DNA from: Mucilaginibacter endophyticus
GTDB taxonomy: Bacteria; Bacteroidota; Bacteroidia; Sphingobacteriales; Sphingobacteriaceae
Length of the DNA stretch: 64,000 nucleotides
Direction of reading: 5' to 3'
Assembly: GCF_003351025.1 (NCBI RefSeq)
Contig: NZ_QPCG01000006.1
Span: 62,001-126,000, forward strand
Made by a program: the position numbers and the translations under genes. This document shows positions 63,283 to 64,000 of this stretch, in pieces. Every line of letters starts with the position of its first letter. The first letter of the stretch is position 1. The notes below the pieces were generated by a model, which saw only the letters and a list, made by a program, of their open reading frames with translations, had not been told where the DNA came from and did no database searches.

Positions 63283-63600
63283 CTATTCTTCCGCCGCTTC
63301 TTCGCCTTTGGTTCCCAATTCCACAATATCGCCCTTTTTGAAAAGTATGGCCTGCAAAGTGGTACGCCATACCGGCTTTTTACGCAGCAAAAACTCAAGG
63401 TCCATACCAAAGTGCTTAAACTCTTCCTGCTGGGCGTTTTGCATAATGGCTTTTGCCTGTTTATCCTTTTCAACCGAAATACGCTGCTCATACCAGTTTA
63501 TAGCTTCGGCCTCTTCGGTTAAAGAAACAATCATGCGCGCAAATGTGCGGGTTTCGTCCGATAGCTCATTTGCAGGTTCGTGATATTGATCAAATGACAT
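63283..63600 (-). CDS. Encapsulated-ferritin (EncFtn) homologue
   Basis: This 105-residue helical protein aligns well with encapsulated ferritins such as Rhodospirillum rubrum EncFtn: ANELSDETR, then IVSLTEEAEAINWYEQR and QQEEFKHFGMDLEFLLR. The ferroxidase ligands are present: Glu30, Glu60 and His63, with Trp36 and Tyr37 beside them, each two places from the R. rubrum numbering. EncFtn proteins oxidise Fe(II) and normally act inside an encapsulin shell. Here the C-terminus (ELGTKGEEAAEE) has no encapsulin-targeting peptide, and no shell gene is in view. The RBS lies in a hairpin. Confidence 0.85.
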   Translation of the reverse strand: MSFDQYHEPANELSDETRTFARMIVSLTEEAEAINWYEQRISVEKDKQAKAIMQNAQQEEFKHFGMDLEFLLRKKPVWRTTLQAILFKKGDIVELGTKGEEAAEE

Positions 63601-63621
63601 ATTACTCCTTTTTTAAAGGAG
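63601..63621 (-). promoter_or_regulatory. Shine-Dalgarno in a hairpin before the EncFtn gene
   Basis: On the minus strand, CTCCTTT-AAA-AAAGGAG-TAAT-ATG places a strong AAGGAG site 4 bp before the start codon, exactly complementary to CTCCTTT just upstream. The site can be masked by a 7-bp stem. This is unusual, as most genes here have no clear Shine-Dalgarno. Confidence 0.6.
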
Positions 63622-63675
63622 ATAAGCATGATTTAAACATTTTTGTTTTAAGCTTTGCAGTATTTAGAATGGTTA

Positions 63676-64000
63676 TCAAGCCAGGTGTTTCCTTATTTTG
63701 ATGGTAACCAGTTTTGATGTAGGTGTATTACTTTGCACAGCCACGCTGTTGATAGGCACCAGTACATTGGCTTCGGGATAGTAGGTAGCTGTGTTGCCCT
63801 CAGGTATATTGTAGGGCACTACTACAAACAGCCTTGCGGCCCGTTCCACACCATCGTCGTAGTTAAACAGGTCAACTTTTTCTTCCGGACCAAAACCGGC
63901 TTTCCGCATGTCGTTTTCGTTCATCAAAATTACCCGGCGCTCATTGTGAATACCACGATAGCGATCATTAAGGCCATATATGGTGGTATTAAACTGATCA
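63676..64000 (-). CDS. FdhF/YdeP family molybdopterin oxidoreductase, C-terminal end (partial)
   Basis: The last 107 residues of a gene that starts right of the window are visible. The sequence includes DQFNTTIYGLNDRYRGI, LFVVVPYNIPEGNTATYYPE and VLVPINSVAVQSNTPTSKLV, which matches the C-terminal molybdopterin-dinucleotide domain of YdeP-like formate dehydrogenase-related enzymes. The active-site parts are outside the window. The EncFtn gene lies 75 bp downstream on the same strand and may be in the same transcript. Confidence 0.85.
   Translation of the reverse strand, partial: DQFNTTIYGLNDRYRGIHNERRVILMNENDMRKAGFGPEEKVDLFNYDDGVERAARLFVVVPYNIPEGNTATYYPEANVLVPINSVAVQSNTPTSKLVTIKIRKHLA

What the first reader, a model, noticed from the sequence alone, without database searches (positions are those of the whole stretch)
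63283..63621. EncFtn homologue without encapsulin, next to a YdeP-like oxidoreductase
The protein keeps the EncFtn ligands (Glu30, Glu60, His63, with Trp36 and Tyr37) but has no encapsulin-targeting peptide, and no shell gene lies in the visible neighbourhood. EncFtn depends on a shell for iron storage in known systems. This version may work free, sit in a shell encoded elsewhere, or serve redox or metal handling for the adjacent molybdoenzyme.
Basis: partly seen in the sequence, partly recalled or inferred. Interest (0 to 1): 0.6.

Follow-up and report, generated by a model that had tools for sequence, protein, structure and literature searches.

The report
Shell-less encapsulated-ferritin relative, probably metal-handling
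This is a small iron-oxidising protein of the kind that normally works inside a protein nano-shell, but its bacterium has no shell gene at all; shell-free versions are already known, and their neighbours in other bacteria suggest that this branch helps cope with toxic metals rather than serving the enzyme encoded beside it.

Summary
The 105-aa ORF at 63283-63600 (-) is an EncFtn-family protein (PF22277, 86 bits, cut-off 27) with all ferroxidase residues, an EncFtn-like model and no targeting peptide. Its near-complete 7.5-Mb genome (a Mucilaginibacter relative) has no encapsulin of either tested Pfam family. Shell-less EncFtns were already described ('Non-EncFtn' 2016; 's-FLP' 2024, NE0167), so this is a new member of a known kind, though NE0167 lies on a different branch. 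Among 98 related loci, 14 actinobacterial ones carry an SLGIGSL-type tail with an encapsulin gene directly downstream; none of the other 84 has an encapsulin match in the DNA held. Of 56 genomes with the short form, 51 lack encapsulin; the other five are alphaproteobacteria with it elsewhere. The YdeP link is not supported: true adjacency occurs only in the window and two close relatives, and within the genus the gene has its own conserved upstream element. The recurrent neighbours elsewhere are metal-efflux genes: P1B ATPases, CzcA-type RND pumps, and the iron exporter MbfA on conjugative plasmids. Best reading: a free cytosolic ferroxidase or metal-binding ring used under metal stress. Oligomer, chemistry and metal remain inferred.

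The parts
63283..63600 (-). Shell-less EncFtn-family protein (s-FLP), 105 aa; ferroxidase residues Glu30, Trp36, Tyr37, Glu60, His63; putative entry site Glu29 and Glu32
   Evidence: PF22277 86.4 bits; alignment; invariance in 90 homologues except Glu32, Asp in one; AlphaFold2 model pLDDT 90; Foldseek best hit 3k6c, rmsd 1.8
63621..63649 (-). Two-block upstream element AAAACAAAA-N15-TTATC (AAAACAAAA at 63641-63649, TTATC at 63621-63625): candidate own promoter or regulatory site, factor unknown
   Evidence: AAACAAAA in the upstream region of 15 of 19 Mucilaginibacter copies versus 3 of 287 other genes; fixed spacing
63605..63621 (-). Inverted repeat CTCCTTT-AAA-AAAGGAG that would cover the ribosome-binding site
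   Evidence: predicted hairpin of about -6.7 kcal/mol for the short stretch; present in the window and L023, imperfect in L024, absent from other homologues, so probably incidental
63676..64000 (-). 3' end of the FdhF/YdeP-family molybdoenzyme gene (771 aa; the rest lies beyond the window); neighbour, not shown to be a partner
   Evidence: TIGR01701 902 bits; upstream lie a DUF7009 gene and fdhD

Best explanation
A free cytosolic EncFtn-type protein. By analogy with NE0167 and Rru EncFtn it should form a ring in which two subunits pair through Glu30, Glu60 and His63 to make each diiron ferroxidase centre. With no shell in the cell, it would oxidise or hold ferrous iron (or a competing divalent metal) transiently and leave storage to other proteins, such as the four ferritin/Dps-family genes of this genome. 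Neighbours elsewhere suggest that the branch belongs to metal-stress defence, working beside efflux pumps. Shown: family, ligands, monomer fold, no targeting peptide, no encapsulin gene, recurrent metal-efflux neighbours in other lineages. Inferred: oligomer, ferroxidase activity, which metal, and that the Mucilaginibacter copy shares the metal role.
For: Family and ligands; model and fold match; no encapsulin in the own genome and in 51 of 56 short-form genomes, versus 9 of 9 tailed-form genomes with it; the SLGIGSL-type tail and an adjacent encapsulin gene go together in 14 of 14 loci and both are absent in the other 84. Metal genes: in Afipia and related loci the gene lies about 40-50 bp after a P1B ATPase that ends an RND (CzcA-type) efflux cluster, with a CDF transporter downstream in some; two Bacteroidota loci (L037, L046) have a P1B ATPase of another subfamily within 0.7 kb. 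12 of 84 short-form loci have a P1B ATPase within 2.5 kb, against about 0.7 expected from the number of such genes per genome. Conjugative plasmids carry it beside MbfA or in an ihp/czc/cadA cluster. Classical ferritins present.
Against: No metal-efflux gene was found within 10 kb of the Mucilaginibacter copies. Many of the 12 P1B cases descend from one alphaproteobacterial arrangement, so independent events are perhaps two or three, and with three the enrichment is modest (p about 0.03). Rru EncFtn without its shell is a slow ferroxidase that does not store iron and precipitates at higher iron (PMC5012862). The residues proposed as the Rru iron exit site (His57, Glu64) are Asn55 and Lys62 here.
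Confidence: 0.55

Rival explanations
1. It is an accessory of the adjacent FdhF/YdeP-type molybdoenzyme, for example supplying iron for its cluster or protecting it from oxidation.
For: Same strand, 75-nt gap, together with fdhD and DUF7009 upstream, conserved in G013 and G017; YdeP-family genes within 3-6 kb in four more Mucilaginibacter loci (L025, L029, L040, L044); 12 of 14 genus members with the protein also have a YdeP gene.
Against: No such neighbour in the other loci, apart from one weak (25%) match in L109; co-occurrence not significant (p = 0.08); G004 and G016 have the protein and no TIGR01701 match; own upstream element conserved whatever the upstream gene.
Confidence: 0.1
2. It is encapsulated after all, in a shell of an undetected type or through an unrecognised targeting sequence.
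For: The 2024 review leaves open that s-FLP tails hold an undefined binding sequence (PMC11202242); five alphaproteobacterial genomes with the short form have an encapsulin elsewhere.
Against: No PF04454 or PF19307 match in this genome and no PF04454 match in 51 of 56 short-form genomes. Shells outside these two profiles were not searched.
Confidence: 0.07
3. It is a diiron enzyme or metal-binding protein with a substrate other than iron storage or detoxification, for example a peroxide- or oxygen-reducing protein.
For: Loss of the shell and of the putative exit-site residues, together with full conservation of the diiron site, fits a changed chemistry.
Against: The tailed actinobacterial homologues beside encapsulin genes lack the same exit-site residues, so this change does not mark loss of the iron-storage partnership; Rru EncFtn showed no peroxidase activity (PMC5012862).
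Confidence: 0.2

Closest known systems
NE0167 of Nitrosomonas europaea (PDB 3k6c), the published 's-FLP' / 'Non-EncFtn' type
   Same: About 45% identity, same fold (rmsd 1.8), same diiron ligands, no targeting peptide (PMC11202242)
   Different: NE0167 is 64% identical to Rru EncFtn but only 46% to this protein and groups with Rru on the tree (only two outgroup rows), so it is probably a separate shell-less lineage; here Asn55 and Lys62 replace the His/Glu pair
EncFtn of Rhodospirillum rubrum (Rru_A0973) and Haliangium ochraceum
   Same: Ferroxidase and entry-site residues, two-helix fold
   Different: Those carry a C-terminal SLGIGSLK peptide and an encapsulin partner (PMC11202242); this one has neither
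Tailed EncFtn of Actinomycetota (Arthrobacter, Cryobacterium, Solirubrobacterales; L084, L094, L097, L100-L118)
   Same: Same sequence clade, 62-71% identity in the listed best segments
   Different: They carry an SLGIGSL-type tail and an encapsulin gene directly downstream

Membership tests
EncFtn-like (Pfam PF22277) | Profile score above the curated cut-off | tested here: met
   86.4 bits against 27
EncFtn-like (Pfam PF22277) | Diiron ferroxidase residues (Rru Glu32, Glu62, His65, Tyr39) | tested here: met
   Glu30, Glu60, His63, Tyr37; invariant in 90 homologues
EncFtn-like (Pfam PF22277) | Two long antiparallel helices plus a short helix | tested here: met
   Model helices 15-43, 47-74, 76-85; best PDB matches are EncFtn structures
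EncFtn-like (Pfam PF22277) | Decameric ring, ferroxidase activity | not testable with these tools
   Needs purified protein
Encapsulin-associated ferritin-like protein (TIGR04535) | Score above the curated cut-off | tested here: not met
   93.7 bits against 125
Encapsulin cargo (EncFtn with targeting peptide) | C-terminal targeting peptide | tested here: not met
   Tail GDIVELGTKGEEAAEE
Encapsulin cargo (EncFtn with targeting peptide) | Encapsulin gene in the genome | tested here: not met
   No match at E <= 10 to PF04454 or PF19307
s-FLP / Non-EncFtn | EncFtn core, short C-terminus, no targeting peptide | tested here: met
   105 aa

The most novel reading that the evidence does not exclude
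A mobile, cross-phylum branch of EncFtn works without any shell as the cytosolic iron or metal buffer of heavy-metal and iron efflux systems, and one actinobacterial clade inside it gained (or kept) the encapsulin partnership.
Probability: 0.3. Interest if true: 0.65.

Novelty: new member of a known kind. Interest (0 to 1): 0.42.

Why it matters
EncFtn is described as unable to store iron without its shell (PMC5012862). A wide branch that keeps every diiron residue in genomes without a shell makes it testable what the ferroxidase does alone. Close homologues with and without shell (64-70% identical) and two genomes nested in the shell clade that lack both tail and shell (L112, L119) are natural comparisons. 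The link to efflux clusters gives a concrete hypothesis for a group whose role the papers found here do not address.

Tried and rejected
YdeP partnership: rejected as a general rule after the neighbourhood survey. Encapsulin elsewhere in the genome: searched with PF04454 and PF19307, none. Viral or phage origin: no relative in viral contigs with the window protein's own patterns or in phage records. A hairpin over the ribosome-binding site was noticed but exists only in the window and its nearest relatives. Loss of exit-site residues as a mark of shell loss: rejected, since tailed homologues lack them too. Conserved Mucilaginibacter neighbours (macro-domain gene, SAM-hydrolase-like gene) were seen only within that genus and not followed. 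Literature searches for shell-less EncFtn with metal resistance found nothing specific.

Full report
WHAT IS THERE. The ORF at 63283-63600 on the minus strand codes for 105 aa. It scores 86.4 bits against PF22277 EncFtn-like (cut-off 27) and 93.7 bits against TIGR04535, below that model's cut-off of 125. The best solved relatives are 3k6c (NE0167) and the Rru_A0973 EncFtn structures. In 90 non-identical homologues all of Glu29, Glu30, Trp36, Tyr37, Glu59, Glu60 and His63 are invariant, and Glu32 is replaced once by Asp. The residues proposed as the Rru exit site, His57 and Glu64, are Asn55 and Lys62 here; they also differ in the tailed actinobacterial homologues, so this is a mark of the branch and not of shell loss. 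An AlphaFold2 model from a 30-row alignment has mean pLDDT 90.4 for the best of five models, which varied from 50 to 90, and its closest PDB folds are EncFtn chains.

NO SHELL. The window lies in a 7.5-Mb genome, 99.99% complete, 3.96% contamination. PF04454 and PF19307 give no match at E <= 10; PF19307 rang in one of the 14 control genomes, below its cut-off, so its sensitivity is less well shown. The genome has one copy of this protein and four ferritin/Dps-family matches. The organism is inferred to be close to Mucilaginibacter from named relatives at 83-92% identity and a shared genome (G021 and L042 have the same sequence context and contig length).

RELATIVES. The scan of genome contigs returned the 80 closest loci of 530 confirmed, so the sample is biased to close relatives. 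With the window's own locus and 17 loci from relatives this gives 98 loci, a few of them the same genome twice (L033 and L042; L039 and L092). Fourteen, all Actinomycetota apart from L084, whose title says Kocuria but which the tree tool labels Acidobacteriota, have a tail with SLGIGSLK, SLGIGSLR or a close variant, and an encapsulin gene directly downstream; none of the other 84 has an encapsulin match in the DNA held. That encapsulin gene was first recognised by eye and confirmed by the PF04454 whole-genome search: 9 of 9 tailed-form genomes positive, 5 of 56 short-form genomes positive. The five are alphaproteobacteria with the encapsulin far from the short gene; four of the five have only the one EncFtn-like gene, so the encapsulin probably holds another cargo there. 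L103 was not held and not searched. A few short-form loci are cut or broken (L074, L106, L055).

TREE. On a 92-row, 95-column tree (few columns, rough support) 14 tailed rows and two short rows form one clade with 99/94 support inside the short forms. The two short rows, L112 Arthrobacter koreensis and L119 Leifsonia flava, have neither tail nor encapsulin in their genomes, which reads as two later losses. The root is uncertain because the outgroup is two long-branch rows. NE0167 is 64% identical to Rru EncFtn and 46% to the window protein, so shell-less EncFtns probably arose more than once.

NEIGHBOURS. In the window the upstream genes are fdhD, DUF7009 and ydeP. Direct ydeP adjacency is found only in the window, G013 and G017; four further Mucilaginibacter loci have it within 3-6 kb, and one actinobacterial locus (L109) has a weak molybdoenzyme match. 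In the genus 12 of 14 genomes with the protein and 13 of 23 without have a YdeP-family gene (p = 0.08; G006 counted as positive from split pieces). In Mucilaginibacter the element AAACAAAA lies 41-48 nt upstream of the ATG in 15 of 19 copies against 3 of 287 other genes, with a TT-rich second block after 15 nt, whatever gene lies upstream. The 19 copies are related and not independent; the contrast with other genes of the same loci is the control.

Outside the genus the recurrent neighbours are metal-efflux genes. Twelve of 84 short-form loci have a P1B ATPase within 2.5 kb. The density of P1B ATPases in 32 of these genomes gives an expectation of about 0.7. Most are alphaproteobacterial and share one arrangement: adaptor, CzcA-type RND pump, P1B ATPase, then this gene after about 40-50 bp in several loci. 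L037 and L046 (Bacteroidota) carry a P1B ATPase of another subfamily, arranged differently. Counting two or three events, the excess is suggestive and not strong. L043 and L086 have a CzcA-like pump within about 3 kb. None of the 14 tailed loci has such a neighbour. Three conjugative Bradyrhizobium plasmids and one conjugative Rhodopseudomonas plasmid carry the gene: two beside the annotated iron exporter MbfA, two in an RND/cadA cluster. MbfA is an iron exporter of Bradyrhizobium (PMC4902296, abstract).

WHAT IT PROBABLY DOES. Rru EncFtn oxidises Fe(II) but does not store iron without its shell and precipitates at higher iron (PMC5012862). A shell-free relative is therefore more likely a transient oxidiser or metal buffer than a store. 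The metal-efflux company elsewhere supports metal stress as the setting. For the Mucilaginibacter copy this is by analogy only, since no such genes lie near it.

NOVELTY. He et al. 2016 already named a 'Non-EncFtn' group lacking the encapsulin sequence (PMC5012862), and the 2024 review lists the s-FLP class with NE0167 (PMC11202242). I found no paper on the function of the group; the library holds open-licence papers only. New here, as far as seen, are the genome-wide absence of a shell, the sharp split between tailed and short forms within one clade, and the efflux and plasmid context.

Noticed in passing
L112 and L119 (whole genomes G487, G488): Two actinobacterial genomes nested in the encapsulin-linked clade lack both the targeting peptide and any encapsulin, an apparent natural loss of the shell.
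   Followed up: partly
63621-63649: Conserved two-block element AAAACAAAA-N15-TT upstream of the gene across Mucilaginibacter; the factor that reads it is unknown.
   Followed up: partly
63605-63621: Inverted repeat CTCCTTT-AAA-AAAGGAG overlapping the ribosome-binding site, only in the window and nearest relatives.
   Followed up: partly
L002:10677-19993 (just beyond the window): ydeP, DUF7009 and fdhD are followed by genes that look like molybdenum-cofactor biosynthesis genes (moaE, moeB, mobA, moaC and moeA-like by eye; not profiled).
   Followed up: no
L143-L146: The gene on conjugative plasmids of Bradyrhizobium and Rhodopseudomonas, annotated only as hypothetical protein, beside MbfA or a cadA/CzcA cluster.
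   Followed up: partly
G470 (L071 genome): Three EncFtn-like copies in one alphaproteobacterial genome, two of them within 0.1 to 2.5 kb of a P1B ATPase by coordinates.
   Followed up: no
L064: Contig titled Williamsia (Actinomycetota) whose copy groups with a Bacteroidota one; probably a mislabelled bin or a recent transfer.
   Followed up: no
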